Positions 30,586 to 47,316 of a stretch of DNA of 52,321 nt are shown one piece after another; position 1 is the stretch's first letter, and the number at the start of each line of letters is the position of its first letter. The stretch is from the NCBI GenBank assembly GCA_903900805.1, contig CAIUOP010000052.1, forward strand, positions 1-52,321, given 5' to 3'. The notes below the pieces were generated by a model. The model ran no database searches. It saw nothing but the letters and a program-made list of their open reading frames with translations, and was not told the DNA's origin. Source of the DNA: an uncultured beta proteobacterium. GTDB taxonomy: Bacteria; Pseudomonadota; Gammaproteobacteria; Burkholderiales; Burkholderiaceae. Made by a program: the position numbers and the translations under genes.

Positions 30586-30628
30586 TGTCAATAGGTATTG
30601 CAAGGGTTTGTAGAGATACAACGCCCTT

Positions 30629-30650: not shown

Positions 30651-30675
30651 CCATCCTTCGGGGTGGCTTTTCTTT
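30647..30675 (+). terminator. Rho-independent terminator after tRNA-Ser
   Basis: AAAGCCATCC (30647-30656) pairs with GGGTGGCTTT (30661-30670) over 10 bp around a TTCG tetraloop, followed by a T-rich tail. It lies inside the island's left edge and can end the tRNA-Ser transcript. Confidence 0.75.
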
Positions 30676-30815
30676 GGGCGTTCGATTCAAGAGGCCCCCA
30701 TTTCCAGAATTGGTTCCATCTAGCCCGCCCTTGTTCATTTATCAGTGCAAACGACTATGCATTTATATAATTTTATGGAATATTATTAATTTTCATAATT
30801 AAGTACAAAGTTCCC

Positions 30816-31298
30816 ATGTGTCCTAATCGTTTATGTGTTGTAGCTGTTTTATTATCAGGGCTCCTCCTTGGTGGGTGTACAACGCCACTCCCTCCTCAGT
30901 CTCAAATGCAACGAGAATTAGAGGGTCATCAACTTCCGCATAAGCCTAATGCAGCAAACTCAGTGGTTTATGTTGTGCGGCCATCTTCAATGGGCACAGC
31001 TGTTAGATTTAATGTCTTTTTGGATGATCAAGATCCAGCATCAGAGATGGGATATAACCGAGGTGGGCAGTACATATATTTCTCAACAACCCCGGGCCCC
31101 CATAAAATATTCTCAGTAGCTGAAAATACCCCTGAGCTTGCTTTTGATATTAAGCCAGGTGAGGTGATTTATATTCAGCAAAAGGTTTACCCTGGAGTGA
31201 TTATGGCTAGGAATGATCTCTCAATACTTCCTGCTACGGAAGGTCAGTGGCGAGTTAAGACTTTATCCCTTGGGACCATTATTAAAACCCAGAAATAA
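30816..31298 (+). CDS. DUF2846-type lipoprotein
   Basis: A 160-aa lipoprotein: signal MCPNRLCVVAVLLSGLLLGG with lipobox LGGC. The mature beta-rich domain (VVYVVRPSSMGTAVRFNVFLDD, YIYFSTTPGPHKIF, GEVIYIQQKV) resembles DUF2846 periplasmic proteins of unknown function. It is the first gene inside the presumed island and is separated from the polyene operon by a terminator, so it is transcribed alone. Confidence 0.7.
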   Translation: MCPNRLCVVAVLLSGLLLGGCTTPLPPQSQMQRELEGHQLPHKPNAANSVVYVVRPSSMGTAVRFNVFLDDQDPASEMGYNRGGQYIYFSTTPGPHKIFSVAENTPELAFDIKPGEVIYIQQKVYPGVIMARNDLSILPATEGQWRVKTLSLGTIIKTQK

Positions 31299-31306
31299 CT
31301 GCAGAT

Positions 31307-31329
31307 TAGGCCCCTCAGATGGGGTTTTT
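31307..31329 (+). terminator. Terminator between the lipoprotein and the polyene operon
   Basis: CCCC (31311-31314) and GGGG (31321-31324) form a short stem around TCAGAT with TTTTT following. The arms are flanked by TTAGG and AGGCCTA. It lies just after the DUF2846 gene stop. Confidence 0.6.
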
Positions 31330-31346
31330 AGGCCTATCCGAACAAC

Positions 31347-31352
31347 TATAAT
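31347..31352 (+). promoter_or_regulatory. Possible -10 box of the aryl-polyene operon
   Basis: TATAAT stands 26 bases upstream of the first gene of the operon. The -35 region overlaps the T run of the preceding terminator and is not a clear match. It is the only good -10 in the gap. Confidence 0.4.
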
Positions 31353-31378
31353 TAGTATTAATAATAATTCGGGTAAAT

Positions 31379-31618
31379 ATGAGCAATATCGCACTAGAGA
31401 CTATGCAATGGCTCCTTCACGAGCGTCTTGGCATTGATAAAGATAAGGTCACATTAGACGCTTCCTTGGAGGATCTTGGGATCGACTCACTAATGCAAAT
31501 TGAACTGCTTTTTGACTTTGAAGATAAGTACAAGGTCAAAATACCCGATATCACTGAAAAACCAACAACCATTGGTGAGTTGCTCGCAGTGATTGAACCA
31601 TTTGTACCCAAGCCTTAA
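31379..31618 (+). CDS. Acyl carrier protein (first ACP, ApeE-like)
   Basis: A 79-aa acyl carrier protein. Ser37 in LGIDSLMQIEL is the phosphopantetheine attachment site; the helix before it (TLDASLEDLGI) is typical. It is the first gene of a type II polyketide operon. The second ACP of the operon (34364) differs, as expected if they carry different intermediates of the polyene chain. No phosphopantetheinyl transferase gene is present, so the host's enzyme must activate it. Confidence 0.9.
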   Translation: MSNIALETMQWLLHERLGIDKDKVTLDASLEDLGIDSLMQIELLFDFEDKYKVKIPDITEKPTTIGELLAVIEPFVPKP

Positions 31619-31636
31619 TTAACTGAGATCTTCAAA

Positions 31637-32881
31637 GTGAAGAGACGGGTTGCTATCACAGGCGTTGGATTAATTGATCCACTAGGTATTTCTATCAGCA
31701 ACTTTTTTGATCGCACCATTCGTGGTGAGTCGTCAATTCGCCATTACTCAACAACTGATATACCTGTGCCCATTTCCATTCCCGCTGTTCATTGTGAAAA
31801 CTTTAACGGTGATGCGATATTGGGTAAGCCAAGAACTATCTCTATGGATAAGTTCGCGCAGATGGGTTTAGTTGCCGCATTTGAAGCATGGACTAACGCG
31901 GGGTTTAATATTAACGATAAGTCTCATAAGCCTGATATTGGGGTGTCATGGGGCACTGCTTTAGGTGGCACTCGAATTTATGAGCAAGGCTTGAAGGAGA
32001 TGTGGCTTAACGATAGAGAGCGTTTGCCACCTTTGTCCGTTGTCATGGGAATGAATAACGCTTGCTCCTCTCATATTGCAATTCAATTGGGTCTCGGTAA
32101 CTCATCTTTAAGTTATTCGGTTGCTTGCTCATCGGCATCGGCGGCCATTGGTGAAGCCTACAGAAGGATTCGTGATGGTGAAGCTAATGCAATGGTTGCT
32201 GGAGGATCTGATACGCCACTTATATATGGAGTAATACGTGCCTGGGATGGTATGCGAGTACTCTCTCCAGGTGATGAGAGAACATCTCCTAATGCCTGTC
32301 GCCCATTTGATAAAAGTCGTTCAGGTCTTGTATTGGGTGAGGGCGCTGCAGCGCTAATTCTTGAAGACTGGGAACATGCCGTTGCTAGAAATGCGCCAAT
32401 CATTGCAGAGTTAGCGGGTTATGGGGCGAACTGCGATCATACAAATTTAGTCAAACCTGATTCGAATGGTCAGATTGCCGCTATTTCATTAGCTCTTAAT
32501 GATTCTGGCGTTATCCCCGAGGATATTGGTTATATAAATGCTCACGGAACTGCAACAGTAGAAGGCGATCCTAGTGAGATAGAGGCGATTAGAAGAGTTT
32601 TCGGGGATCAAGCCAAGGATTTAGCGGTGAGCTCAACTAAATCGACGCATGGACACCTCATGGGGGCGTCAGGTGCCATAGAGGCTGTAATCTCAATTCT
32701 CTCCATTAAGAATGGAGTAGTTCCCCCTACAGCTAATCTGAGAGATGTTGATCCTGATTGCGAAGGGGTGCGTCATATTAAGGTTGGAGATAACAATAAA
32801 TTAAATCTCAAAGCTGCAATATCAAACTCATTCGCCTTTGGTGGTAGTAATGCAGTTTTGGTATTTAAGTCTGTTCAATAG
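31637..32881 (+). CDS. Beta-ketoacyl-ACP synthase, FabF-type (ApeR-like)
   Basis: A 414-aa ketosynthase with GTG start at 31637. Catalytic Cys164 lies in YSVACSSASAA, His303 in NAHGTATVEGD and His340 in KSTHGHLMGASGA, with Lys335; the full C-H-H set indicates an active condensing enzyme. In aryl-polyene pathways a FabF-like KS works alongside a KS/chain-length-factor pair to add malonyl units. Start lies 18 bases after the ACP gene. It is divergent in sequence from the second KS of the operon. Confidence 0.92.
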   Translation: MKRRVAITGVGLIDPLGISISNFFDRTIRGESSIRHYSTTDIPVPISIPAVHCENFNGDAILGKPRTISMDKFAQMGLVAAFEAWTNAGFNINDKSHKPDIGVSWGTALGGTRIYEQGLKEMWLNDRERLPPLSVVMGMNNACSSHIAIQLGLGNSSLSYSVACSSASAAIGEAYRRIRDGEANAMVAGGSDTPLIYGVIRAWDGMRVLSPGDERTSPNACRPFDKSRSGLVLGEGAAALILEDWEHAVARNAPIIAELAGYGANCDHTNLVKPDSNGQIAAISLALNDSGVIPEDIGYINAHGTATVEGDPSEIEAIRRVFGDQAKDLAVSSTKSTHGHLMGASGAIEAVISILSIKNGVVPPTANLRDVDPDCEGVRHIKVGDNNKLNLKAAISNSFAFGGSNAVLVFKSVQ

Positions 32882-32893
32882 GTTGATGGCTCA

Positions 32894-33616
32894 ATGAACT
32901 CGTCTACTAATTTTGGGGTTAAAGCTTGGTCAGCTTGGAGTTCATCCCTAAGAAGTCAAGAGGACTGGTTAGTGTGGGCTAAGAATCCCTTCGTGCCAAA
33001 TGGTGAAGATAAGCCAAAGGTAGAGGGAATGCAGCCAATAAATCGAAGAAGATTGAAGCGTCTTGGCAGCATGGCTTTGGAGGCTGCATATAATTTGCCG
33101 GATATAAGATCCCCAATAATTTTTTGCAGCAAACTGGGTGAGTCTGAGAGATGCTATGAGTTACTTAAAGAGTTAGCTGAAACTGGAGCTCTGTCACCGC
33201 AGTCTTTTAGTTTGGCTGTCCATAACGCAATACCCAGTTTGTACACGATAGACAAGAAGATGAACTCAAATGTTCTCGCTATCTCTTCTGAAGCGGGGGT
33301 ATTCTCAGCCATCATTGAAGCATTGGGATTGTTTGCTTGCGGCGAAAAGGTGGTTCGCATCATCGTTGCTGAAGAAGCCGTACCCAGTGAGTACAGACAG
33401 TATTGTGACTTTACCGATGAATCTTATGCGTATGCTATTGACCTTATTCCAGCGGGAGACGTATCACTCTCATTTTCTAGTGATGAGAAATCTATTCTAA
33501 ATTCTACGGGGATGTCCACTAATCTCCAGGCTTTTCGATTCCTGCTAGCGGATGATCGTTTGTATGAGTGCACCATTGGTAAAACCTCTTGGGCATTAAA
33601 GAGAGAAGAGCTTTGA
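32894..33616 (+). CDS. Ketosynthase-like chain length factor (ApeC-like)
   Basis: A 240-aa protein that looks like the N-terminal half of a ketosynthase without the active-site cysteine: where KS enzymes have ACS the segment reads NVLAISSEAGVFSAI, after SFSLAVHNAIPSLYTI. This is the Ketoacyl-synt_2 type found as ApeC in aryl-polyene clusters, where it forms a heterodimer with the KS ApeO to set chain length. It lies 12 bases after the KS gene and overlaps the next gene by four bases. Confidence 0.85.
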   Translation: MNSSTNFGVKAWSAWSSSLRSQEDWLVWAKNPFVPNGEDKPKVEGMQPINRRRLKRLGSMALEAAYNLPDIRSPIIFCSKLGESERCYELLKELAETGALSPQSFSLAVHNAIPSLYTIDKKMNSNVLAISSEAGVFSAIIEALGLFACGEKVVRIIVAEEAVPSEYRQYCDFTDESYAYAIDLIPAGDVSLSFSSDEKSILNSTGMSTNLQAFRFLLADDRLYECTIGKTSWALKREEL

Positions 33617-34389
33617 ATCGCTACTGGCGTATTTTTGCAACTGGTCTTTCATTTGCCATATTTGGACTAGGTGGGGTATTACTTACTTGCACTTTAATAC
33701 CTATTTTAGTCCTTACAAGTGACAACGAGAACCGAAGAAAATATGGAAAGAAATTACTCAAAAAATCATTTCAATCCTTTGTGTGGGGCATGCAATTTCT
33801 GGGCGTTATAAATGTACAAGCATCAAACTTGCACCACCTTAAATTAGGGGGGCGTTTAGTTTTGGCAAATCACCCTAGTTTGATCGATGCAGTTATATTG
33901 ATTGCGCTAATCGAAAACCCTAATGGGATTATTAAGTCTAGCTTATTTAAAAACCCATGTATGTACGGCCTGGCGAAAATGGCTGGGTTAATTCGTAACG
34001 TTGAGGGGCCAGAGCTAATTAGAAAATGTATGGAATCTATAACCACAGGCGATAATTTGATAGTATTCCCTGAAGGAACTAGAACAAAGGTTTTGGGGGA
34101 GCTTGTCTTTAAGCAGGGGGCTGCATATATAGCAGTTAAAGGTGGTTTTGATATAACGCCAGTATTAATAGTTACCTCTGAACCATTTCTAAGAAAAGAT
34201 GATATTTGGTATAAGGTTCCTTTGAATAAACCTTTAATCGCCATTTCGGTAATGGAGGAGATTAAGGTGGCAACAAAGGTTAGGGTAGGGAACGATCCTA
34301 TCCTGGCGTCTGAAGAATTAACTGAGTACCTAGAAGAATATTATTTACACGAATTAAGAGAATATGAGCGATCTGGAATTAGAGATTAA
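33613..34389 (+). CDS. PlsC-like acyltransferase (ApeD-like)
   Basis: A 258-aa membrane-associated lysophospholipid acyltransferase-like enzyme. A hydrophobic N-terminus precedes the catalytic motif NHPSLID (His87 and Asp92, the H-x4-D pair) and FPEGTRT near residue 150. TTG 33613 is chosen because it overlaps the previous stop as TTGA with GAGAAGAG just upstream; another TTG at 33589 lies deeper. It probably attaches the polyene chain or a fatty acyl group to a lipid acceptor. Confidence 0.85.
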   Translation: MNRYWRIFATGLSFAIFGLGGVLLTCTLIPILVLTSDNENRRKYGKKLLKKSFQSFVWGMQFLGVINVQASNLHHLKLGGRLVLANHPSLIDAVILIALIENPNGIIKSSLFKNPCMYGLAKMAGLIRNVEGPELIRKCMESITTGDNLIVFPEGTRTKVLGELVFKQGAAYIAVKGGFDITPVLIVTSEPFLRKDDIWYKVPLNKPLIAISVMEEIKVATKVRVGNDPILASEELTEYLEEYYLHELREYERSGIRD

Positions 34390-34624
34390 GAAATTAATCA
34401 TTAGCAGTTTAAATTTAGAAGACTATCAACCTGAGGACATCACCTCAGAGGAATCACTATTTGCTGATGGTCTTGGCTTGGATTCTATTGATGCATTGGA
34501 GCTAGGGGTTGCTCTTCAGAAAAAGTATGGACTTGAGCTTACGAGCGTAACAAAAACTGAAGGAAAGCATTTTTATTCCGTTGCCACTTTGGCTAAGTTT
34601 GTTGCTGAAAATAGAACAAAGTAA
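34364..34624 (+). CDS. Acyl carrier protein (second ACP, ApeF-like)
   Basis: An 86-aa ACP; Ser41 in LGLDSIDALELGV carries phosphopantetheine. The longer helix II and KKYGLEL ending match the second ACP in aryl-polyene clusters. It overlaps the acyltransferase gene by 26 bases, implying coupled translation. Confidence 0.9.
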   Translation: MSDLELEIKKLIISSLNLEDYQPEDITSEESLFADGLGLDSIDALELGVALQKKYGLELTSVTKTEGKHFYSVATLAKFVAENRTK

Positions 34625-34650
34625 GCTTTTAATTTAAAAAATGGAATTCA

Positions 34651-35166
34651 ATGGAATTTCTACTGGCAATTTTGCTGCCACTATCGATTTGGGTATTCAA
34701 GTTCTTCGGGATACCATTCTGGGTAGCCGGCATATTTCTTATCCCCCTCATTTTTCTTAAGAAAAATCCGTACTGGGGTAAGGCACTCGCACTGGTTGCT
34801 TTAGTTCTTGGCAGTGCTTCTTTATTGCTAAGAACCCCGGATTTTATCTACTTCTACCCAGTAATGGTGAATGCAGTTCTGCTGTCTATATTTGTTTCAA
34901 GCTTATATAGACCGCAGACTATCGTAGAGAAGATTGCTAGATTAAGAGACCCAAGATTCTCCGATCTAGATATTCCTTACGCAAGGAAAGTTACGCTTGC
35001 CTGGGCATTATTTTTTGCCATCAACGGCTGCGTAGCATTTGTAACTATTTTGATGGAAGATAAGTTTTATTGGTCTATATACAACGGTGCTATTTCATAT
35101 GTGCTGATGGGGCTAATGTTTGCTGGAGAGTTTTATTGCCGCAAAAGGTATATAAAAAGTGCTTAG
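34651..35166 (+). CDS. COG4648-type membrane protein (ApeG-like)
   Basis: A 171-aa protein with five or so hydrophobic segments, beginning MEFLLAILLPLSIWVFKFFG and containing FVSSLYRPQTIVEKIARLRD and the conserved TLAWALFFAINGCVAF. Membrane proteins of this kind sit between an ACP and an AMP-ligase in aryl-polyene operons; their biochemical role is unknown. It overlaps the ligase start by eight bases. Confidence 0.8.
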   Translation: MEFLLAILLPLSIWVFKFFGIPFWVAGIFLIPLIFLKKNPYWGKALALVALVLGSASLLLRTPDFIYFYPVMVNAVLLSIFVSSLYRPQTIVEKIARLRDPRFSDLDIPYARKVTLAWALFFAINGCVAFVTILMEDKFYWSIYNGAISYVLMGLMFAGEFYCRKRYIKSA

Positions 35167-36829
35167 CTATAAATTATCTAATTTTCTATTAAATGGGCAT
35201 GATGAGACACCCATAACAGATGACGGTATTACCTTTTCCGAACTAAAGGAAGATGTATCAAAAGCGAGGGTATCTATTAAATCGGTACCCAATGAGGAAA
35301 TTGCTTTATTTCATTCTGATGCTTACATCTTTTTGGTTTGGTTGCTTGCTGCTTGGCAAGAGGGGCGAAAAGTCCTAGTTCCAGTTGATAAAAATATCGC
35401 CTTAAACCCTAGTTTTTCAGGTTGGCTCAAGGTTGGTGAGTTTGATGCACCAGATTTAACTGGGTGGGATGTTGGCCATGAAGTTGCCAATAGAGTATTT
35501 AGTGAAGTTGATTCTAATTTTGGGGCATTGGGAGTTTTTACCTCAGGATCAACCGGTGAGCCAGTACGAATTGATAAAACGATGCGCCAACTTGAGAATG
35601 AGGTAGATGCTCTAGAGTTCACTTTTGGTGAGAAGATCGAAAAAGACGTTGTGTTTTATAGGTCCGTGAGTCACCAGCATTTTTTCGGAATGCCTTTTGG
35701 TGTCTTTTGGGCAATATCTCGTGGCTCAATGTTATCAAGAGTTGCGATCAAAGGCGGACATGAGTGGAATACGTCAACTCCACAGGTATTAATAACTAGC
35801 CCATCCTTCCTAAAGAGTATTGCGGATACTACTTCACAACATAAAAATATTGGCTCTGGGATTCGGTCGATTTTTAGTGCTGGTGGAATACTTGAGGATT
35901 CGATTTTTTCGATAATCAATTCAATTACAAAAAATAGAGTAGTTGATGTATATGGCAGCTCTGAAACGGGGCATATTGCATGGAGGAGCTCCCCTGAAAT
36001 GCCTTGGCAAGTACAGGAGGGAGTGGAGTTTAAGAGGCCAGTAGAAGACGTGCTGGAAATTAAATCTAAATTTTGCCCTAGTGATGAATGGTTCTCAACA
36101 TCTGATTTGGCTCATCTAAGAGGGAATTCATTTGAAATACTCGGAAGAGCTGATCGAATTATCAAAATCGAAGGTACCAGGGTTTCCTTAAGTCAGCTTG
36201 TGGCGTCAATAAAGGAATCTAGCTTGGTGGAAGATTGCCTGATTAGTGATATAGAGAATGGGAGGAGGGCTCAATTAGGTGCAGTATTAAAGCTAAGCTC
36301 TTTAGGTCTTCAAACTCTTGAAGTTGATGGAAGATTGCGATTGATTAATAGCCTGAAGGAGTCGTTGCGGGGTAAAGTCAATGCAATTGCTATACCAAGA
36401 AGGTGGAGGTTTGTAGAGGAGTTCCCAGCAAATAGTCTGGGCAAAGTTTTAAAAGTAAATTTAGACGGTATATTTTCGGATGGATTAAAAACCCCCATCA
36501 TCATAAGCCGTAAAGTTGAAGGGAATTCTGTTGAATTGGTTTTGGATATGCTCAAGAGTCTAGATTGCTTTAATGGACACTTTGATGATTTCCCGGTTGT
36601 CCCTGGCGTCGCGTTAATCGAATGGGCAATGAGAGCTGCAGAAGTTCATTTAGTCATAAATCATATCTTTTCTGGAATGTCTCAAATTAAATTTCAAAAA
36701 TTTATCAAGCCAAATCAAATTATTCGCCTAAGGTTGGACTTAAATCCTGAATCGATGAATCTAAAATATAAATATCACAATGCCGACATTGTGTATTCCA
36801 GCGGCATTTTGAAGTTTAGGAATAAGTAA
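35159..36829 (+). CDS. AMP-ligase fused to hot-dog dehydratase (ApeH-ApeI fusion)
   Basis: A 556-aa two-domain protein with GTG start. Residues 1 to about 450 form an acyl-adenylating enzyme (FTSGSTGEP at 127-135, YGSSETG, GRADRIIKIEG) that would load an aryl acid such as 4-hydroxybenzoate on an ACP. From about residue 455 comes a hot-dog fold domain with FNGHFDDFPVVPGVALIEW (His474), the active-site pattern of FabA/FabZ-type dehydratases, ApeI-like. The two are separate ApeH and ApeI genes in E. coli-type clusters. It overlaps the membrane protein gene by 8 bases. Confidence 0.85.
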   Translation: MLSYKLSNFLLNGHDETPITDDGITFSELKEDVSKARVSIKSVPNEEIALFHSDAYIFLVWLLAAWQEGRKVLVPVDKNIALNPSFSGWLKVGEFDAPDLTGWDVGHEVANRVFSEVDSNFGALGVFTSGSTGEPVRIDKTMRQLENEVDALEFTFGEKIEKDVVFYRSVSHQHFFGMPFGVFWAISRGSMLSRVAIKGGHEWNTSTPQVLITSPSFLKSIADTTSQHKNIGSGIRSIFSAGGILEDSIFSIINSITKNRVVDVYGSSETGHIAWRSSPEMPWQVQEGVEFKRPVEDVLEIKSKFCPSDEWFSTSDLAHLRGNSFEILGRADRIIKIEGTRVSLSQLVASIKESSLVEDCLISDIENGRRAQLGAVLKLSSLGLQTLEVDGRLRLINSLKESLRGKVNAIAIPRRWRFVEEFPANSLGKVLKVNLDGIFSDGLKTPIIISRKVEGNSVELVLDMLKSLDCFNGHFDDFPVVPGVALIEWAMRAAEVHLVINHIFSGMSQIKFQKFIKPNQIIRLRLDLNPESMNLKYKYHNADIVYSSGILKFRNK

Positions 36830-36831
36830 GA

Positions 36832-37566
36832 ATGAAGCTTTGTATATTGATTCCCTACTACAACCATCCAGATGCTATTGGAGCGGTTGTTAATCAACTG
36901 CTTCCCTATGACACCAACATTCTGATTGTTGATGATGGGAGTAGTGCTGAGTCAAAGAAAGTTCTTACGCCTCTATTGCAAGAGCCCAGAGTTTTATTAG
37001 TGACCCGCATACTTAATGGCGGTAAGGGGGCTGCGGTAATTACTGGTATGCGAGAAGCTTTAGAGCTGGGGTATACACATGCCTTGCAGGTTGACGCGGA
37101 TGGCCAGCATGATTTAACTAAGATTCCAGCGCTTATTAAACTATCAGAGCAATATCCAGGCAGTATTATTTCTGGGATGCCTGTTTACGACGAATCAGTG
37201 CCTACCAGTAGAAAGTTATGGAGATATGCGACACATATATTGGTGTGGATTCATACACTTTCCCTTGAGATCAAGGATTCAATGTGTGGATTCCGAATTT
37301 ACCCTTTACATCAAACCTTAGGGGTTATAGATGCTCGTGAGCAATTCGGGCAGCGTATGGATTTTGATATTGAAATACTAGTAAGAGCGCATTGGGCTGA
37401 TTTGCATACTATTCAGCTGCCTGTTGGAGTTAGCTATCCGCTTGATGGGGTCTCCCATTTCCAGCTCTTTAAGGATAATTTTTTAATTACTAACCTTCAC
37501 ATTAGATTGTTCTTTGGAATGCTAGTGAACTCACCAAAGTTAATGCTTAGAAGGGTTCTAGCTTGA
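36832..37566 (+). CDS. Family 2 glycosyltransferase (N-terminal ApeJ-like part)
   Basis: A 244-aa inverting glycosyltransferase of the GT-A fold. IVDDGSS (32-38) and the metal-binding D-x-D in QVDADGQHD (Asp88, Asp90) are present, with a C-terminal amphipathic stretch that may contact membrane. In E. coli clusters the glycosyltransferase and an acyltransferase are one ApeJ protein; here the next gene is separate. It probably adds a sugar to the polyene lipid head. Confidence 0.85.
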   Translation: MKLCILIPYYNHPDAIGAVVNQLLPYDTNILIVDDGSSAESKKVLTPLLQEPRVLLVTRILNGGKGAAVITGMREALELGYTHALQVDADGQHDLTKIPALIKLSEQYPGSIISGMPVYDESVPTSRKLWRYATHILVWIHTLSLEIKDSMCGFRIYPLHQTLGVIDAREQFGQRMDFDIEILVRAHWADLHTIQLPVGVSYPLDGVSHFQLFKDNFLITNLHIRLFFGMLVNSPKLMLRRVLA

Positions 37567-38480
37567 TTCACTGGGCAGACATAAATGAGGTCTCAGCCTC
37601 CTTTGGAATGAAAATCTTATTTCTTGTATATAGGGTTTTTGGAAGGCTGCCTGTATTAATTATTCTTTACCCCGTTATTTTGTGGTTTTTTGTGGTGAGC
37701 AAGGTTGCTAGAGAATCATCGCGAGATTATTTACGTAGACTTTATGTATTTAGCGGGGGCGCGTCTCCAGAGCCAACTTCATTAAATGTCTTTAGGCATT
37801 TATATGCATTTGGAGAGTGCATTCTAGATAAGCTGATTATCTGGAGCGGTCGAATTGATGACCTTGATTATTCATTAGAGGGTCTAGAGGAATTCCATTC
37901 TCACGCAGGCGAAGGGCTAGGTGCCGTTGTTGCTGTTTCTCATTTGGGAAACTTAGATTTTTGTAGGGCCATTGGACAGCTATATCCCGATATTAATTTG
38001 ACTGTTCTTGTGCATACAAGTCATGCCGTCAAGTTCAATCAGCTTTTAAAGTCTATCAACCCTGAGAGCGCTCTAAATATTATTCAGGTATCAAAATTTT
38101 CGATGCATGATGCAATGCTGTTATCTGAAAAGATTCAAAAAGGTGGTTTGATAGCTATAGCAGGCGATCGAGTTCCTCTGTTATGGGGAAATACAATCCC
38201 TGTGAATTTCTTAGGCTCTACGGCTGACTTCCCTATAGGCGCATACATGCTGTCCAAAACTCTTGGTTGCCCTTTATTTTCACTTACGTCAATTAAGGTT
38301 GGGGGTAGTTACCAGCTATCTTGTCAGAAAATTGCTGAATTCGGCATTGGGGGGAAATCAGGATCGATTGAAGAGGCTGCCCAAGCTTTTGCCAATATAT
38401 TAGAAGAGGGCTGCTTAAAGTCTCCCTTTCAATGGTTTAATTTCTATCCTTTTTGGCAGCGTCGTATCAATCATGAATAG
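37563..38480 (+). CDS. LpxL/HtrB-like acyltransferase (C-terminal ApeJ-like part)
   Basis: A 305-aa lauroyl/myristoyl-acyltransferase-like enzyme with an N-terminal membrane helix, the motif VAVSHLGNLDFCRA (catalytic His near residue 121) and GDRVPLLWGNTIPVNF. TTG start overlaps the previous stop as TTGA. Similar enzymes acylate lipid A precursors; here it likely transfers the polyene or a fatty acyl chain to a glycosylated lipid carrier for insertion in the outer membrane. Confidence 0.85.
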   Translation: MIHWADINEVSASFGMKILFLVYRVFGRLPVLIILYPVILWFFVVSKVARESSRDYLRRLYVFSGGASPEPTSLNVFRHLYAFGECILDKLIIWSGRIDDLDYSLEGLEEFHSHAGEGLGAVVAVSHLGNLDFCRAIGQLYPDINLTVLVHTSHAVKFNQLLKSINPESALNIIQVSKFSMHDAMLLSEKIQKGGLIAIAGDRVPLLWGNTIPVNFLGSTADFPIGAYMLSKTLGCPLFSLTSIKVGGSYQLSCQKIAEFGIGGKSGSIEEAAQAFANILEEGCLKSPFQWFNFYPFWQRRINHE

Positions 38481-39081
38481 CATTTTTAAAAGGTTAATAG
38501 CTCTTATTCTGTTTCTGATTGCTGGCTCTGTTTGCGCTAATTCGCTAGTAAGTCAAATAGAGGGCTTAGTTAGTTCAGCTCCTACTGTGCGTGGAAAGTT
38601 TACCCAAAGTAAAACTCTTTCAGGAGTGAGTAAAAAGCTAAACTCTGAGGGATTCTTTATCGTTGATAAAAGCAAGGGGATAGTCTGGATTACAGAGAAA
38701 CCTATCTATCAAACTCTTAAAGTATCTGACACAGGTATACGTATAGGTAATAAGAGCGGTGTATTAATGAATTTGGAGGCTCGCAGCGAGCCATCAGTTA
38801 AGTACATTAACGAATTAGTGCTAGCTATTTTTTCTGGCGACATGAGTTCACTAGAGAAGTTATTCAACTACTCTGGTGATGCGACAGCCAAGGATTGGAA
38901 TCTTGAATTGACGCCTAAAAATACAGCCTCACCTTTTTTTAAGAAGATTACGATTGTAGGCAGCTCTGCAATCAATCGTATTGGCTTCATTTCAAAAGAT
39001 GGTGACTTAATTGAGATTATTTTTTCTGATGTGCGTTTAGCTCCAGTCTTGAGTAAAGATGAAATCCTTCAATTTCAGTAA
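38473..39081 (+). CDS. LolA-like outer-membrane lipoprotein carrier (ApeL-like)
   Basis: A 202-aa periplasmic protein: signal MNSIFKRLIALILFLIAGSV cleaved near CANS, then the LolA-type strand pattern VRGKFTQSKTLSGV, GFFIVDKSKGIVWITEKP. LolA carries hydrophobic cargo across the periplasm in a half-barrel; a paralogue in a polyene operon probably carries the pigment lipid. It overlaps the acyltransferase by eight bases and the exporter by 23 bases. Confidence 0.85.
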   Translation: MNSIFKRLIALILFLIAGSVCANSLVSQIEGLVSSAPTVRGKFTQSKTLSGVSKKLNSEGFFIVDKSKGIVWITEKPIYQTLKVSDTGIRIGNKSGVLMNLEARSEPSVKYINELVLAIFSGDMSSLEKLFNYSGDATAKDWNLELTPKNTASPFFKKITIVGSSAINRIGFISKDGDLIEIIFSDVRLAPVLSKDEILQFQ

Positions 39082-41368
39082 GACCCTAGCGGTTCTTTTC
39101 CTATCTACGACCCTTGGGCTTGTTGTTTGGACGACTCTTAATATCCATGTTATTTCCAGTCGTCTAGATAACAATGTATTTTCGCTACTTCCGAAATCAG
39201 AACGAAATGTAGTGGCTGAAGAGTTTATTGACCGTGTGGCTAAAAAGGGCGAAAGATCACTGGTTGTATTGTTGAGTTCAGACAACCTTGAGACATCTTT
39301 AGAGGCGGAGAAAACATTTAAGTCCTTAATTAAGAGCCTAGATATCAAGAGCACACAGTCGTACGATGGTTATGCTGAATACGTATCTAAGCTTCTAGTT
39401 CATAAGTCTGGTTTAGTTACTTCGGAAGATATTTCGCTATTAGATAGTCAGCCAGCAGCTTTTTGGTTTGATAAATCAAATGCGATAGCATATTCGATGG
39501 GTAGCTCACCCATTCCTTGGAGGGATGATCCTTTCGGACTCTTAGGTGATTGGTTATACAGCCTTGGTGGCGTCACTAAGATCAGGCCTTATGGCGATAG
39601 TTTGGTTGTTGAGAGGGCGGGAATCTCGTACGTCGCTTTGCCCATGGAGATTGGTACCACTGTGGAATCATTGTCTACCCAGGTCGTTCTTGCTGATGCA
39701 ATTAATGCGGCTATTGGAGAGACCAAGCTTAAGCATCAAGGGGTAGAAATTATTAAGACGGGGGTTATTTTCTTTGTCTCCGATACTTCAAATTCAATCC
39801 AAAGCGATATTTCTTTAATCGGATTAATTTCCGGCATCTCTGCATTGCTTCTGGTGATTTTTATCTTTAGAAGTCTTTATGCGGTTGCAATTGTGCTACT
39901 GACAGTAGCAATTGGATTTCTGTACGCTTTACTTGCATGTTTTTTTATCTTCCCCAAAGTCTACATCTTGACCCTTGCATTCGGTACAAGTTTGATAGGA
40001 ATGTCAGTTGACTATTGCTTGTATTGGCTTACTGCTTCGATAGACGATATTAAAAGTCCGCTTGAGAGAAGGCGATATTTACTACCTGGAATGTTCTTGG
40101 CTTTAATTACAACGGCAATGGGTTACTTTTTGATGGCAATTACACCATTTCCAGTGTTATCCCAGATGGCAGTTTTTTCTATAGCTGGCATATCAGCCGC
40201 TTGGTTGACTGTAGTTTTGACTTTTCCGCACATTAATAAACTAAGTTTTAGTGCAAATAGCTCCTTGAAGTGGGTTAATTACATTCAACCTATAAAGTAT
40301 CCAATTTCAGCTGCTGCTCGAAAAGTGATGATTGCTGCAATGATTCTGCTATCCCTTTATGGCATTCTTTCTTTCCGCTCCAATGACAATATTAGGTCAT
40401 TAGCAAGTTTTGATAAAGAATTGATAGCTCAGCAAATAAAAACTTCAGAGATTCTCAATTTACCAAGCCCATCTCAATTTTTTATTGTTAGCGGCTCTAC
40501 CGAGGAGGAGGTTCTCTCTAGAGCTGAGGAGCTCACCAACAAGCTAGATAAATTGGTTTCTGAAGGTGTGATTAGTGGGTATCAGTCGATAACTAGGTTT
40601 ATCCCATCAATGGCCACGCAAACAATAGCAAGTAAGGCATATTCATCCCAAGGCAAGGAAAATGCCACAAAGCAGATTGCCAAAGAATTCGGTATGAGTG
40701 CAGCCTGGGTGCAAAGTCAAAGTCAAGTAAATAAGCCGCTAACAGTTGATGAGATAAAAGAAATCCCCTTTTATGAAAAGTTCTTATATCTTTGGTTCAC
40801 ATCTGATTCTTCGTCAATTAAATCAACTGCTGTCTTATTAACTGGGGTTAATGGTTCGGATGCGTTTATTAAACTTTCTCAATTGGCGGGTACGTATATT
40901 TCTTGGATTGATAAACCGCAAGAGATTTCAGATGTATTTTCAAGATACAGAACATTCTTTTCCTATGTGATTGCAATAGGTTACTTACTAACATTTGTGG
41001 CAATTTATATAAAGTACAGGAGGAGCGCCTGGAGAGCTGTTTTACCGCCGATTCTTGCGACTTGCATGACTTTAGCCATCCTGAGTCTAGCTGGCGAAAC
41101 CGTTACCTTAATGACGGTTATTGCATTTGCTTTGCTTCTTGGTATTGGTACTGATTATGGAATTTTCTTACTCCAGTACCCTGCCGATAAGAGAGTGCTG
41201 CTATCCATATCAATAGCAGCCTTGATGACATTAATTTCCTTTGGCAGCCTTTCTTTGAGTTCCGTTCCGGCAATACATAGTTTTGGTATTGCACTACTTT
41301 TTGGAGTTCTACTATCCTGGCTGCTAACTCTGTTTTTTGCCAAAAAAGTTAATATAGATGAGGAATAA
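39059..41368 (+). CDS. MMPL/RND-type exporter (ApeM-like)
   Basis: A 769-aa inner-membrane exporter with the two-repeat RND architecture: an N-terminal helix, a large periplasmic loop (about residues 35-245), five to six helices, a second loop (about 425-650) and final helices. GTSLIGMSVDYCLYWL and GIGTDYGIFLLQYPADKR are the proton-relay segments, each with an Asp. Length matches hopanoid/lipid-exporting MMPL proteins. It probably moves the finished polyene lipid out of the inner membrane to the LolA-like carrier. Confidence 0.9.
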   Translation: MKSFNFSKTLAVLFLSTTLGLVVWTTLNIHVISSRLDNNVFSLLPKSERNVVAEEFIDRVAKKGERSLVVLLSSDNLETSLEAEKTFKSLIKSLDIKSTQSYDGYAEYVSKLLVHKSGLVTSEDISLLDSQPAAFWFDKSNAIAYSMGSSPIPWRDDPFGLLGDWLYSLGGVTKIRPYGDSLVVERAGISYVALPMEIGTTVESLSTQVVLADAINAAIGETKLKHQGVEIIKTGVIFFVSDTSNSIQSDISLIGLISGISALLLVIFIFRSLYAVAIVLLTVAIGFLYALLACFFIFPKVYILTLAFGTSLIGMSVDYCLYWLTASIDDIKSPLERRRYLLPGMFLALITTAMGYFLMAITPFPVLSQMAVFSIAGISAAWLTVVLTFPHINKLSFSANSSLKWVNYIQPIKYPISAAARKVMIAAMILLSLYGILSFRSNDNIRSLASFDKELIAQQIKTSEILNLPSPSQFFIVSGSTEEEVLSRAEELTNKLDKLVSEGVISGYQSITRFIPSMATQTIASKAYSSQGKENATKQIAKEFGMSAAWVQSQSQVNKPLTVDEIKEIPFYEKFLYLWFTSDSSSIKSTAVLLTGVNGSDAFIKLSQLAGTYISWIDKPQEISDVFSRYRTFFSYVIAIGYLLTFVAIYIKYRRSAWRAVLPPILATCMTLAILSLAGETVTLMTVIAFALLLGIGTDYGIFLLQYPADKRVLLSISIAALMTLISFGSLSLSSVPAIHSFGIALLFGVLLSWLLTLFFAKKVNIDEE

Positions 41369-41906
41369 TTTAATTATTCGTTTGCTGGGAATGATAATCG
41401 TTGCTCTTGGATTGAGCTCATGCTCCACTGTATTTCTAAATGACTCTGGTAGTACTAGTCTTAATGCATTGGGTGAGCCACGTGTTCTTGAGATGCAAAT
41501 GCATTTAACAAGGGGGTCTGATTCCTACACAATGGATCTTGTAGTTGAGGTGACCAAACAGGGCTTAACAGTCATTGGATCCTCATTTGGTGTTCGGCGC
41601 TTTACGCTTTCATATAACGGTGACGTTATTGCTGAGGGCATTGGGACTGGGTTGCCATTCTATGTTCCAAATAAACTGATTGTGGATGACGTTATCTTAG
41701 CCCTATCGTCAAGGCGTGCTTTGGAGGGTAGATTGCCTAAAAATTGCAAGCTAGTAAGAGTTGGTGAGGTTGGGAAGATATACTGTGACGAGAAGCTCTT
41801 GGTGAATGTTGAGTACCAAAAGACTGCTGATAAAAATGAACTTGTTTTGGTAGAGAGATTTCAACCGGAATACAAAGTTAATTTCGTTATAAGTGAAGTT
41901 AAGTGA
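41358..41906 (+). CDS. DUF3261-type lipoprotein (ApeN-like)
   Basis: A 182-aa lipoprotein (signal MRNNLIIRLLGMIIVALGLS, lipobox LSSC). The mature domain has long beta-strands (TMDLVVEVTKQGLTVIG, FTLSYNGDVIAEGIG), fitting the DUF3261 family of aryl-polyene clusters. A LolB-like role, receiving the pigment at the outer membrane, would pair well with the LolA-like gene; this is inference. It overlaps the exporter by 11 bases. Confidence 0.8.
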   Translation: MRNNLIIRLLGMIIVALGLSSCSTVFLNDSGSTSLNALGEPRVLEMQMHLTRGSDSYTMDLVVEVTKQGLTVIGSSFGVRRFTLSYNGDVIAEGIGTGLPFYVPNKLIVDDVILALSSRRALEGRLPKNCKLVRVGEVGKIYCDEKLLVNVEYQKTADKNELVLVERFQPEYKVNFVISEVK

Positions 41907-43063
41907 CTATTTATATTAATAATTATTCGATTGTTAGCCCGCTAGGTTATGGGGTTGCTGAGACCCGTACGAACCTTTTTTCTGGCGTTAGTCCAGGAAT
42001 GATAAAAACAGAAAAATATAGCCCCGGAAGATCGCTTTCCTTGGGATTAGTTAATGATCATTTGCCTGATCTAAGTTTGGCACCTATAAAACATCGCTCA
42101 AGAAATAACCAATTACTCTTGGCCGTCTTTCAAGGCCTTGAAGATAGCTTTTATTCTCTCTCTAGTCATGTTGATAAAAGTCGTATAGCTATTGTTATTG
42201 GCTCTAGCACCTCAGGTATATCTGGCGAAGAGGATGCCTTCCCTTATTTGTTGTCAAATAATAAATTTCCAGAGTCATTTGATTTATCTCAGCGACTATT
42301 TTGTTCGCCTGCTAATTTTCTTGCTGATAGATTGGGTATCACTGGGATTGTGCATGGAATATCAACGGCATGTACATCAAGCTCTAAAGCAATTATCAGC
42401 GGCGCAAGGCTCTTAAAGTCAGGCATGGTGGATTTGGTGATAGTCGGCGGCGTAGATACACTATGCAAGTTTACTGTTGCTGGATTTACTGCAATTGAGT
42501 CTGTATCTGCCGATCGCTGCAACCCCTTGTCCCTCAATAGATCTGGAATCAATATTGGAGAGGGTGGCGCATTGTTTTTAATGAGTCTTCAGCCTGGAAA
42601 TATTTCCCTATCTGGATGGGGAGAGAGTTCTGATGGCTATCACATCTCAGCACCAGACCCCAGTGGAGTGGGTGCAGCATTGGCGGTGAATGATGCTCTC
42701 AAGATGTCTGCTAAAAGAATTGATCAGGTTGAATACATAAACTTACATGGTACGGCTACAAGACATAACGATGCAATGGAGTCGCAACTTGTTAGTAAAT
42801 TAGGATTTGAATGTCCAGTTAGTTCCACTAAGCCGCTCACCGGGCACACGCTCGGAGCTGCTGGCGCAATTGAGGCTGTGATTTCTTGTCTTGCAATTGA
42901 GGGCGATGGGCGGCTGCCTCCTCATTTGTGGGATAAGGCGCAAGATCCTGAGTTGCCAAAATTAAATATTAGCACTCAGCTGGAAAGCGCCCCCAAAGTG
43001 GTCATGACTAATAATTTTGCATTTGGCGGAAATAATACTTCTCTAATATTGGAGAGCGTATGA
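41903..43063 (+). CDS. Beta-ketoacyl-ACP synthase (ApeO-like)
   Basis: A 386-aa ketosynthase with GTG start overlapping the previous TGA. Cys157 in ISTACTSSSKA, His282 in LHGTATRHND and His315 in TGHTLGAAGA give the full catalytic triad. The order lipoprotein, KS, dehydratase, ketoreductase (N-O-P-Q) is that of E. coli-type aryl-polyene operons, so this is the ApeO counterpart, expected to pair with the chain-length factor at 32894. Confidence 0.9.
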   Translation: MTIYINNYSIVSPLGYGVAETRTNLFSGVSPGMIKTEKYSPGRSLSLGLVNDHLPDLSLAPIKHRSRNNQLLLAVFQGLEDSFYSLSSHVDKSRIAIVIGSSTSGISGEEDAFPYLLSNNKFPESFDLSQRLFCSPANFLADRLGITGIVHGISTACTSSSKAIISGARLLKSGMVDLVIVGGVDTLCKFTVAGFTAIESVSADRCNPLSLNRSGINIGEGGALFLMSLQPGNISLSGWGESSDGYHISAPDPSGVGAALAVNDALKMSAKRIDQVEYINLHGTATRHNDAMESQLVSKLGFECPVSSTKPLTGHTLGAAGAIEAVISCLAIEGDGRLPPHLWDKAQDPELPKLNISTQLESAPKVVMTNNFAFGGNNTSLILESV

Positions 43064-43503
43064 ACTCTGAACTGATTGGGTCGCTACCTCACGCCTCATC
43101 AATGCTTCTGCTTGATAGACTAATTTCGAGTAATGATTGCTCTGTTGTTGTTGAAGCAACGATTAAAAATGATTATCCTTTTTCTAATGGCGGCGCTGGC
43201 TCTTGGATTGGTCTTGAATTGATGGCTCAATCAGCAGCAGTGATGTCTAGGCTTAGCAATTCTGAGAAGTCAGCAAAGCCTTCCCTGGGGTTTTTGTTGG
43301 GAAGCAGAAGCTTTATTGCACATGTCCCAGAATTTACTCCTGGCCAAAAGGTCACGATAGAAGTTCAAATTGATCTCGAGTCTCTAGCGCACCCTACCAT
43401 TTCTGCTTCAGGCACGATAAAGGACGATTCTGGGCGTCTAATCTGCGAGGGAACTCTCACGCTACTGGAGCCTAATGATGATGCTTTATATTTGCCTAAA
43501 TGA
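43060..43503 (+). CDS. Hot-dog fold dehydratase (ApeP-like)
   Basis: A 147-aa protein of the FabZ/ApeP hot-dog family: LIGSLPHASSMLLLDRLI near the N-terminus, GSWIGLELMAQSAAVMSRL at about residues 47-65, then FLLGSRSFIAHVPEFTPG. In the known pathway ApeP forms a heterodimer with ApeI, whose counterpart here is fused to the ligase. It overlaps both neighbours by four bases (ATGA). Confidence 0.85.
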   Translation: MNSELIGSLPHASSMLLLDRLISSNDCSVVVEATIKNDYPFSNGGAGSWIGLELMAQSAAVMSRLSNSEKSAKPSLGFLLGSRSFIAHVPEFTPGQKVTIEVQIDLESLAHPTISASGTIKDDSGRLICEGTLTLLEPNDDALYLPK

Positions 43504-44234
43504 AACTGAATAAAACTGTTCTTATTACTGGCGCCAGCAAAGGTATTGGCAAGGCTATTGCCTTCAAGTTGGCAGCTGAAGGTTATGACCTAGCGCTTCA
43601 CTGTAAGTCTAGCATTGGCGAATTGAAATCATTGGCTGACTCGCTTCAAAAAGAATTCAATACAGACTCATATCTTTTGCAGTTTGATGTTTCAGATAGG
43701 CTGGCATCTAAGGATTCCTTAGAGGATTATTTAGATAAAGCTGGAGCGCCCTATGGCATTGTTTGTAATGCAGGCATTACTGCTGATAATGCATTTCCTG
43801 CGATGCTAGGGGAAGAATGGGATGGAGTAATCGCAACTAATCTAGGATCTTTCTATAACGTTCTACACCCTTTGGTCATGCCTATGGTGGTAACAAGAAA
43901 GCCAGGAAGAATCATCACCATGTCTTCGGTTTCTGGAATGATTGGTAATCGTGGACAGGCTAATTACAGCGCTTCAAAGGCTGGGATCATTGGCGCCACT
44001 AAATCATTGGCTATTGAGTTAGCAAAACGTAACATCACAGTCAATTGTGTTGCCCCTGGGTTGATTGACACCGATATGATTTCATCTGAAGTGGCTGAAG
44101 CGACCTTAAAAGCTATACCGGCTCAGAGAATGGGTAAACCTGAGGAGGTTGCAGCAACCGTTTCATTTCTTATGAGCGATGATGCAGCGTACATCACAAG
44201 GCAGGTCATATCGGTTAATGGTGGAATGATTTAA
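43500..44234 (+). CDS. 3-oxoacyl-ACP reductase, FabG-type (ApeQ-like)
   Basis: A 244-aa short-chain dehydrogenase. Cofactor loop LITGASKGIGKAIAF (8-22), the catalytic Ser in TMSSVSGMIGN, and YSASK with Tyr and Lys, followed by VAPGLIDTDMI. It reduces beta-keto groups between condensation rounds so that dehydration can give conjugated double bonds. It is the last gene of the operon and overlaps the dehydratase by four bases. Confidence 0.92.
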   Translation: MKLNKTVLITGASKGIGKAIAFKLAAEGYDLALHCKSSIGELKSLADSLQKEFNTDSYLLQFDVSDRLASKDSLEDYLDKAGAPYGIVCNAGITADNAFPAMLGEEWDGVIATNLGSFYNVLHPLVMPMVVTRKPGRIITMSSVSGMIGNRGQANYSASKAGIIGATKSLAIELAKRNITVNCVAPGLIDTDMISSEVAEATLKAIPAQRMGKPEEVAATVSFLMSDDAAYITRQVISVNGGMI

Positions 44235-44404
44235 ACGTTTTGAAGGCGCCGTTTATATCGATGCATTAAGTATTCAACGAATTAAAAAATATCTCGCAAA
44301 GACAGCCTCAAATTTTTTATACAAGATATTCTGACACTATGTACTTAGCCATAATAGATTCTGACAGCCCTGCCAGAACCGAGTTAATACTCAAGCAGTA
44401 GAAA

Positions 44405-44749
44405 TTATTTCTTAGTATCTTTTTGGATGTCTTGGAGGACTTTTTTCCCGTATGCAGAATCAATTGGGCCCGAGCATTTGAAATCAAGATCAATTATTGA
44501 TGAGTCTTTGGAGGAAGGATCAGCCCTTTGATCTTCTTTGACAACGACCATACCCTCATTGCTTTGAATAACACAGAATTTTTGAGCATGCTGATATGCT
44601 CTTAATTTGACTTTATCTGCGCCACCGCGAGATACGTTAATCGTATATAAACCATTGCTAATTGGCTTTACTCCAGTAGTGGTAGCGCAGGCAGAAAGAA
44701 TTAAGCCTGCTGAGACTATTGAAATAATTTTAGGTGTGGATAGATTCAT
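44405..44749 (-). CDS. Small lipoprotein, unknown function
   Basis: A 114-aa lipoprotein (signal MNLSTPKIISIVSAGLILSA, lipobox LSAC). The mature part (YTINVSRGGADKVKLRAYQHA, EDQRADPSSKDS, LDFKCSG) resembles many small envelope lipoproteins with an AYxxAxxFC motif. It is inside the island, converging with the polyene operon. Function unknown. Confidence 0.7.
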   Translation of the reverse strand: MNLSTPKIISIVSAGLILSACATTTGVKPISNGLYTINVSRGGADKVKLRAYQHAQKFCVIQSNEGMVVVKEDQRADPSSKDSSIIDLDFKCSGPIDSAYGKKVLQDIQKDTKK

Positions 44750-44855
44750 TTTGACCCCCTTGAGAGCTACTTTTACGTTTACCTACTCTTTGGTAAGTGG
44801 TCAGTTCATTGTATGTTAGATTTCTCTTAATTTTTATATATAAATTTTGCAGACT

Positions 44856-46149: not shown

Positions 46150-46159
46150 AGTAGCATCG

Positions 46160-47315: not shown

Positions 47316-47316
47316 C

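What the first reader, a model, noticed from the sequence alone, without database searches (positions are those of the whole stretch)
31379..44234. Aryl-polyene-type pigment operon of 15 genes
Seen: fifteen same-strand genes, most overlapping by 4-26 bases, encode two ACPs, two complete ketosynthases, a ketosynthase-like protein without the active cysteine, a FabG reductase, hot-dog dehydratases, an AMP-ligase, PlsC- and LpxL-like acyltransferases, a GT2 enzyme, a LolA-like carrier, an MMPL exporter and a DUF3261 lipoprotein. Known: this is the gene set of aryl-polyene clusters (ApeA-R type) from Gammaproteobacteria. The gene order ApeN-O-P-Q at the end is kept, but the ketosynthase and chain-length factor are at the front. 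I infer a carotenoid-like outer-membrane pigment in a Polynucleobacter-like host.
Basis: partly seen in the sequence, partly recalled or inferred. Interest (0 to 1): 0.85.

Follow-up and report, generated by a model that had tools for sequence, protein, structure and literature searches.

The report
Mosaic aryl-polyene pigment gene island
A freshwater bacterium of the genus Polynucleobacter carries, next to a tRNA gene where close relatives lack it, a gene set that probably makes a protective yellow aryl-polyene pigment, and this set is a hybrid in which the usual helper enzyme pair has been swapped for a pair from another branch of the same pigment pathway.

Summary
Fifteen same-strand genes (31379-44234) form an aryl-polyene (APE) type operon in Polynucleobacter. 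ApeC, ApeO, ApeP and ApeI-type proteins are identified by structure and family matches, and the C-to-Q order is collinear with E. coli CFT073. ACP1 and KS1 at the head belong to a pair that heads xanthomonadin/arcuflavin-like clusters of Rhodocyclales and other Proteobacteria (KS1 52-63% identical), while the body (8 genes concatenated) nests among Burkholderiaceae APE clusters (100/100 against the other type). ApeR, ApeF, ApeK and ApeB are not in the cluster. So the operon is a mosaic in which ACP1+KS1 probably does the job of ApeF+ApeR. It lies in a 15,564-bp island (30586-46149) at the 3' end of tRNA-Ser(GGA), bounded by a 14-bp copy of the tRNA end; the three nearest relatives by acs have the empty site. 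5 of 186 Polynucleobacter genomes carry the operon, in largely different surroundings, each time with a small lipoprotein gene and galE downstream; a tRNA edge was seen only in the window's genome. Product, pigment and expression are inferred. New variant of a known kind.

The parts
30495..30585 (+). tRNA-Ser (GGA), integration site; its last 14 bases (30572-30585) are the left direct repeat
   Evidence: ARAGORN; repeat; same tRNA at the empty site of three near relatives
46136..46149 (+). right direct repeat CGCCCCTTCCGCCA (copy of the tRNA-Ser end); right edge of the island
   Evidence: family D16
30586..46149 (.). inserted island, 15,564 bp (tRNA end to end of right repeat), absent from G038, G010 and G092
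   Evidence: alignments: synteny breaks exactly at both repeats
30816..31298 (+). lipoprotein with a weak DUF2846 match, inside the island but not beside the cluster in the other four carriers
   Evidence: 31.5 bits, below cut-off 34.3
31379..31618 (+). ACP1, head acyl carrier protein (GIDSL), on the xanthomonadin/arcuflavin-like side in its tree (branch not starred)
31637..32881 (+). KS1, complete head ketosynthase (Cys-His-Lys-His kept), not ApeR; Trp at the position of FabB Phe201
32894..33616 (+). ApeC, chain-length factor (Ketoacyl-synt_2)
   Evidence: PF13723, 141.8 bits; the only two PDB matches are 6qsp_B and 7f28_A
33589..34389 (+). ApeD, PlsC-type acyltransferase (listed TTG start may be too early)
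   Evidence: 37% to E. coli ApeD
34364..34624 (+). ACP2 = ApeE (56% to E. coli ApeE)
   Evidence: PRK09184, 92.7 bits over cut-off 70
34651..35166 (+). ApeG, small membrane protein
   Evidence: 43% to E. coli ApeG; Pfam IspA just below cut-off
35159..36829 (+). ApeH-ApeI fusion: AMP-ligase and ApeI dehydratase domain
   Evidence: PF00501, PF22818
36832..37566 (+). GT2 glycosyltransferase = N-terminal half of E. coli ApeJ (49%)
37563..38480 (+). LpxL-type acyltransferase = C-terminal half of E. coli ApeJ (30%)
38473..39081 (+). ApeL, LolA-like carrier
39059..41368 (+). ApeM, MMPL/RND exporter
41358..41906 (+). ApeN, DUF3261 lipoprotein
41903..43063 (+). ApeO, elongating ketosynthase
   Evidence: PRK09185 over cut-off; best PDB match 6qsp_A; 44% to E. 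coli ApeO
43060..43503 (+). ApeP dehydratase
   Evidence: PF22817 over cut-off
43500..44234 (+). ApeQ, FabG-type ketoreductase (57% to E. coli ApeQ)
44405..44749 (-). small lipoprotein of unknown family, after ApeQ in 5 of 5 carriers (59-68% identity)
   Evidence: no Pfam family for the window's copy, three chance-level matches of one member each among the others; no PDB fold match at E 0.001
44847..45833 (+). galE, UDP-glucose 4-epimerase, last gene of the shared block
   Evidence: TIGR01179 314 bits, cut-off 262; 5 of 5 carriers

Best explanation
A tRNA-Ser-targeted genomic island carries a mosaic aryl-polyene operon. Inferred path: 4-hydroxybenzoate (host UbiC) is adenylated and loaded by ApeH onto ACP2 (ApeE). 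The ACP1+KS1 head pair does the first condensations and malonyl supply, in place of ApeF+ApeR. ApeO-ApeC elongates; ApeQ, ApeP and the ApeI domain reduce and dehydrate without enoyl reduction, leaving a conjugated polyene. With no ApeK thioesterase, the LpxL- and PlsC-type acyltransferases take the chain straight from the ACP onto a (glyco)lipid made with GT2 and GalE. ApeM, ApeL and ApeN move it to the outer membrane, where it quenches light-driven and peroxide stress. Shown here: gene content, collinearity, phylogenetic mosaicism, the insertion and its empty site, conservation in five genomes. Inferred: every reaction, the starter, localisation, pigment and function.
For: ApeO/ApeC best PDB matches are 6qsp A/B, the X. 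doucetiae ApeO-ApeC pair. ApeI and ApeP Pfam models over cut-off. C-D-E-G-H-I-J-L-M-N-O-P-Q collinear with CFT073. KS1 nests with head KSs of xanthomonadin/arcuflavin-like clusters (97/96 with L067 in the careful tree); union with ApeR rejected (p 9.7e-5). Body of 8 genes nests in APE clusters (100/100); in 8 of 8 single body-gene trees the XAN rows exclude the window, and ACP1 falls on the XAN side. ApeR (58-65%) in 10 of 10 APE genomes searched, no match over 35% in the 5 carriers or over 44% in 15 KS1-type genomes. Empty site and 14-bp repeat. UbiC present.
Against: No product or expression data. The only phosphopantetheinyl transferase match is one of AcpS size in each of 12 genomes tested, while R. 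solanacearum AcpP2 and AcpP5 were not activated by E. coli AcpS (PMC9542644, passages). ApeK's absence leaves chain release unexplained. The ApeO test against a place beside the XAN type missed significance (p 0.053). ACP1's own placement is not starred (79 columns). The KS1-with-FabF test did not finish. The tRNA edge holds for the window's genome only: in the other four carriers no tRNA lies at the block's edge (G070 has tRNA-Ser(GCT) 1.7 kb upstream, the other three none in the roughly 20 kb scanned each side), and the island has no integrase. A 14-bp repeat alone is not rare (41 repeat families in the region); its weight comes from lying exactly at the synteny breaks. I know of no measured function for the KS1 clade (recall).
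Confidence: 0.76

Rival explanations
1. Ordinary APE cluster: KS1 is simply a diverged ApeR moved to the front, no mosaicism.
For: KS1 is about 32% identical to E. coli ApeR and the cluster keeps the usual number of parts (two complete KSs, two ACPs).
Against: ApeR is its own clade (14 rows, 100/100) and KS1 sits inside another; one clade rejected, p 9.7e-5; Trp at FabB-F201 in 26 of 26 of the KS1 clade, Phe in 14 of 14 ApeR.
Confidence: 0.07
2. KS1 and ACP1 are a copy of the host's own fatty-acid acpP-fabF pair.
For: Same acpP-fabF order; KS1 scores best against FabF models (389.6 bits, below the cut-off 493.75) and FabF structures.
Against: Own FabF is only 35% identical, while head KSs of other genomes reach 63%; the FabF rows form a separate clade. 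The AU test for this case did not finish.
Confidence: 0.03
3. The polyene is esterified to a dialkylresorcinol (arcuflavin/flexirubin-like product).
For: Many KS1 relatives lie in Rhodocyclales, where Azoarcus BH72 makes such a hybrid and its DAR locus has an ACP and a ketosynthase side by side, darC and darJ (PMC3949708, section 18).
Against: The only FabH-type genes in the assembly are two near-identical copies of the fab-operon gene, so no DarB was seen; DarA was not searched for. The assembly is 92% complete.
Confidence: 0.06
4. The starter is not 4-hydroxybenzoate (another benzoate, a cinnamate or a short fatty acid), giving a polyene with a different head group.
For: The ApeH part is only 26% identical to E. 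coli ApeH; the KS1 clade has a different pocket residue.
Against: UbiC is present; no aromatic ammonia-lyase in the assembly, which argues against a cinnamate starter.
Confidence: 0.15

Closest known systems
APE cluster of E. coli CFT073 (ApeA-R) and its Xenorhabdus and Acinetobacter kin
   Same: ApeC, D, E, G, H, I, J (as two genes), L, M, N, O, P, Q in the same order as CFT073
   Different: No ApeR, ApeF, ApeK, ApeB or ApeA in the cluster; ACP1-KS1 head pair instead; ApeH-ApeI fused; ApeJ split
   Same: Nearest kind of body: in g3 loci ApeO 45-49% and ACP2 52-60% where fully covered; ApeH-ApeI in one frame; GT2 and LpxL mostly separate
   Different: They keep ApeR after ApeQ and ApeK; no head pair
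Xanthomonadin/arcuflavin-like clusters of Dechloromonas, Gallionella, Uliginosibacterium and others
   Same: Have the same ACP1-KS1 pair (KS1 52-63%); no ApeR in 15 genomes searched, no ApeK in 21 loci
   Different: Body genes belong to another clade (100/100); in several the ApeO-C-Q genes lie on the other strand or apart from the ACP2-MMPL block
Xanthomonadin-type cluster of Lysobacter enzymogenes (ORF1-17)
   Same: KS plus half-length CLF protein, LolA, acyltransferase; pigment-less mutants more sensitive to light and peroxide (PMC3691225, abstract and passages)
   Different: One KS and one ACP named, XanB2-like ORF5; no head pair reported in the passages seen

Membership tests
Aryl-polyene (APE) biosynthetic gene cluster | ApeO ketosynthase with half-length ApeC chain-length factor | tested here: met
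   best PDB matches are 6qsp chains A and B, then 7f28; identities of these entries
Aryl-polyene (APE) biosynthetic gene cluster | ApeP and ApeI dehydratases and ApeQ reductase, no enoyl reductase | tested here: met
   PF22817 and PF22818 over cut-off; ApeQ over the FabG cut-offs (NF004200, TIGR01831), though Pfam's broad SDR model PF13561, titled enoyl-ACP reductase, also matches it
Aryl-polyene (APE) biosynthetic gene cluster | ApeH acyl-ACP synthetase loading an aryl starter | tested here: inconclusive
   homologue present, UbiC in genome; substrate not testable
Aryl-polyene (APE) biosynthetic gene cluster | LolA-like, MMPL and DUF3261 outer-membrane transfer set, acyltransferases and GT2 | tested here: met
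Aryl-polyene (APE) biosynthetic gene cluster | ApeR second ketosynthase (E. coli and Burkholderiaceae subtype) | tested here: not met
   not essential to the wider family: the Lysobacter cluster is described with one KS and an E. coli apeR deletion kept the main lipid (PMC8253772, passages)
Aryl-polyene (APE) biosynthetic gene cluster | Yellow aryl-polyene product | not testable with these tools
   no chemistry available
Flexirubin / arcuflavin (polyene-DAR ester) | DarA and DarB | tested here: inconclusive
   DarB: no FabH-type gene other than two copies of the fab-operon gene; DarA not tested; assembly 92% complete
Site-specific tRNA genomic island | Insertion at a tRNA 3' end with duplicated tRNA end and empty site in relatives | tested here: met
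   for the window's genome; not seen at the other four carriers' copies
Site-specific tRNA genomic island | Own integrase gene | tested here: not met
   the frames between the repeats are the 18 genes listed in parts; no integrase among their family matches, short overlapping frames not scanned

The most novel reading that the evidence does not exclude
ACP1-KS1 is an exchangeable initiation module of aryl-polyene synthases: a self-contained carrier-plus-ketosynthase cassette that can replace ApeF+ApeR (and coincides with loss of ApeK) across clusters whose bodies diverged long ago, and that changes the starter or the first rounds of elongation, so that these freshwater bacteria make a pigment distinct from both classical APE and xanthomonadin.
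Probability: 0.35. Interest if true: 0.62.

Novelty: new variant of a known kind. Interest (0 to 1): 0.47.

Why it matters
The role of the second ketosynthase and second carrier protein in aryl-polyene synthesis is unsettled (ApeR is dispensable for the main lipid in E. coli, PMC8253772, but raises output in vitro, PMC8358021; passages and abstract seen). A natural operon in which just these two parts have been replaced by a pair of another lineage, while the rest stayed, gives a clean test of what that module does. It also shows the pathway sitting as an island in small-genome freshwater plankton, where a light- or oxidant-screening pigment would be a plausible niche trait carried by few species.

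Tried and rejected
Considered KS1 as ApeR, as a host fabF copy and as part of a DAR pathway (see rivals). Looked for spread by plasmid or phage: the 15.6-kb island has no near match in plasmids or phages, and ApeC found no relative in viral contigs with the six peptide patterns used. ApeC homologues occur on 22 records of the plasmid collection, all under 60% identity, some over 2 Mb long. Structure of the small lipoprotein (mean pLDDT 76) gave no PDB match at E 0.001. Paper searches for Polynucleobacter with aryl polyene, arylpolyene, or pigment plus polyene found 0 papers; searches for P. parvulilacunae and for yellow Polynucleobacter colonies gave listings only, no paper opened. The idea that carriers share one genomic site was not borne out: 37 of 40 flank comparisons show nothing; of the three that do, two are real shared neighbours, a 148-150-residue lipoprotein directly upstream in G041 and G097 and a 218-219-residue gene downstream in G040 and G097, and one is a 38% match. 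The 42-43% KS1 relatives (L061-L063) showed no other polyene genes nearby except one weak ApeG-like hit in L063 and were not pursued.


Full report
Observation. Against the E. coli CFT073 ape proteins (annotated region) the window's genes 3 to 15 match ApeC, D, E, G, H+I, J (two halves), L, M, N, O, P and Q in that order. ApeC near the front is therefore standard. What is not standard is the head (ACP1 31379-31618, KS1 31637-32881) and the absences: ApeA, ApeB and ApeK have no detectable homologue in the window. ApeK was found in 18 of 19 APE-type loci (the miss, L042, is a contig that ends before its place), 0 of 5 Polynucleobacter clusters and 0 of 21 clusters of the other type (one BLAST query and threshold, so very distant thioesterases could be missed).

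Identity of the ketosynthases. ApeO (41903-43063) has 6qsp_A as best PDB match and ApeC (32894-33616) has 6qsp_B, with 7f28 next; PMC8358021 names 6QSP as X. doucetiae ApeO-ApeC, 7F28 as A. baumannii ApeO-ApeC and 7F27 as A. baumannii ApeR (passages). KS1 scores best with FabF structures (291 bits) and only 216 bits with 7f27; the same paper calls ApeR FabB-like (abstract and passages). In a tree of 82 ketosynthases (quick method, several long branches flagged) ApeR is one clade (14 rows, 100), while KS1 of the five Polynucleobacter sits inside a clade with head ketosynthases of other genomes (23 rows, 96; with Rhodocyclales L067, 98). Of the 21 KS rows at 38% or less, only a part was put into that tree (L084, L085, L087, L096-L098 and L100-L102 among them). 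A careful tree of 46 rows gives 97/96 for Polynucleobacter plus L067, and the other head KSs are split by it in 200 of 200 bootstrap trees. Holding KS1 with ApeR is rejected (p 9.7e-5). Catalytic Cys, His, Lys and His are kept in 5 of 5 and 21 of 21 of this clade; at the position of FabB Phe201, which PMC8358021 equates with the aryl-stacking Phe202 of ApeR, all 26 have Trp, whereas 14 of 14 ApeR, 25 of 25 ApeO, 2 FabF and FabB have Phe. At the partner position (Tyr135 in A. baumannii ApeR, Met138 in FabB) my alignment gave Met in 14 of 14 ApeR rows, which does not agree with the paper's tyrosine, so I place no weight on that column.

Where KS1 relatives live. A scan of the named genome collection with six exact peptide patterns (so far from exhaustive) gave 40 loci: 2 Polynucleobacter, 17 at 52-63% identity outside the genus and 21 at 38% or less. 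A class-level search gave 7 genomes besides G000 out of 369 at E 1e-100, four of them at 52-53%. All 21 loci of the 52-63% group have polyene-cluster genes nearby, 20 of 21 with an ACP hit directly upstream of KS1 (the exception is L057), and most continue ACP2-ApeG-ApeH-ApeI-LpxL-LolA-MMPL. These resemble the xanthomonadin and arcuflavin clusters (gene list in PMC3949708 section 18; PMC3691225 passages), so I call them XAN type; that label is mine. Lysobacter xanthomonadin is described with one KS and one ACP, so the pair is an addition there too. Azoarcus BH72 has an ACP and a KS side by side, darC and darJ, in its DAR locus; whether that is the same pair I could not test.

Mosaicism. In eight single-gene trees of body genes (ApeC, ACP2, ApeG, ApeHI, LpxL, LolA, MMPL, ApeQ; quick method) the XAN rows (6 to 20) form one side of a branch without Polynucleobacter (support 87 for ApeHI, 96-100 for the rest) in 8 of 8; for ACP1 the APE-type second-ACP rows form one side (99) and Polynucleobacter splits the XAN rows, without a starred branch of its own. 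PlsC, GT2, DUF3261 and ApeP were not tested this way. A concatenation of eight body genes (ApeC, ACP2, ApeG, ApeHI, LpxL, LolA, MMPL, ApeO; 26 rows chosen from the loci, 2,733 columns, some genes missing in some rows) puts Polynucleobacter within the APE clusters: APE plus Polynucleobacter against XAN 100/100, Polynucleobacter with eight Burkholderiaceae rows 100/99; its exact sister there is less sure (88/88), and uneven amino-acid make-up is flagged for many rows. For ApeO alone the test of placing Polynucleobacter next to XAN was borderline (p 0.053). ApeR at 58-65% identity was found in 10 of 10 Burkholderiaceae genomes chosen because they carry APE clusters; in the 5 carriers the best match is 35%, and in 15 KS1-type genomes 44% or less (30 chosen genomes). 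So the APE body kept its order while ApeF+ApeR were replaced by ACP1+KS1. These genomes share ancestry, so the counts are not independent events.

Distribution and mobility. ApeC and KS1 are each present in the same 5 of 186 Polynucleobacter genomes. All five have the same 15 genes followed by a convergent small lipoprotein gene and galE. Beyond that block 37 of 40 flank comparisons between carriers show nothing; G041 and G097 share the lipoprotein gene directly upstream of ACP1, G040 and G097 share one gene further downstream, and one match is a 38% paralogue. galE is much more diverged than the operon (55-64% against 75-94% for ApeO), so it may have its own history. In G000 the block lies between acs plus tRNA-Ser(GGA) and gene 46216. 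In G038, G010 and G092, the three best by acs (97-98%), which lack the cluster, the tRNA is followed directly by that gene, and DNA alignment breaks exactly at a 14-bp perfect repeat: the last 14 bases of the tRNA (30572-30585) and 46136-46149. G003 shows the same empty order at gene level, and the interval up to gene 48404 holds other genes in G004, G040, G041, G097 and G070. No integrase was found between the repeats. In the other four carriers the block has no tRNA at its edge; G070 has tRNA-Ser(GCT) 1.7 kb upstream. So tRNA-targeted entry is shown for the window's genome only. A further imperfect repeat with TTACCAA motifs near both ends (30612-30648 and 45886-45922, 73%) could be integrase arm sites; that is a guess. 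G+C is 0.38-0.45 over the block (mostly 0.38-0.42) and 0.44-0.49 in the 20 kb upstream. G000 looks like a metagenome assembly (fabH-fabD-fabG occur twice as near-identical variants), but the cluster is also in two named strains.

Mechanism. From APE biochemistry as told in PMC8253772 and PMC8358021 (passages) the path in Best explanation follows. UbiC is in the genome; no aromatic ammonia-lyase was found. One PPTase match, of AcpS size, is all that was seen in each of 12 genomes, 5 carriers and 7 non-carriers, so it must serve these ACPs if the pathway runs. Changes that alter amino acids are rare relative to silent ones in all 15 genes wherever silent divergence could be estimated, most clearly against G040 (dN 0.02-0.10, dS 0.18-1.36), which fits a working pathway. 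Colour, localisation and benefit are inference.

Verdict. A real aryl-polyene type operon, misread only in calling it the ApeA-R set. New are the mosaic head module, the host and the tRNA island. I found no paper linking Polynucleobacter with aryl polyenes in the open library searched; subscription papers and antiSMASH databases were not searched.

Noticed in passing
30495-48404: The interval after acs and tRNA-Ser(GGA) looks like an insertion hotspot in Polynucleobacter: G004, G040, G041, G097 and G070 hold different genes there.
   Followed up: partly
44405-44749: Small lipoprotein of unknown family that accompanies the cluster in 5 of 5 carriers; predicted strand-strand-helix-strand-strand-helix fold without a PDB match at E 0.001.
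   Followed up: partly
30612-30648 and 45886-45922: Imperfect 37-nt direct repeat with TTACCAA motifs just inside the left and about 214 bp inside the right island end; possible recombinase arm sites.
   Followed up: no
L006 2269-2718 and L008 16625-17071: Two of the five carriers (G097, G041) share a lipoprotein gene directly upstream of ACP1 on the other strand, 86-92% identical, absent from the window.
   Followed up: partly
L061-L063 (about 5-14 kb): An ACP-KS pair 42-43% related to KS1 occurs outside recognisable polyene clusters in three distant genomes; its role is unknown.
   Followed up: no
L064 and L117 (contigs C65 and C81 of the window's genome): fabH-fabD-fabG present twice as near-identical variants, a sign of strain mixture in the assembly.
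   Followed up: no
L084, L086-L096, L099, L103, L104: Paracoccus genomes share an ACP gene overlapping a KS of about 440-450 residues, a distinct conserved pair not inspected further.
   Followed up: no
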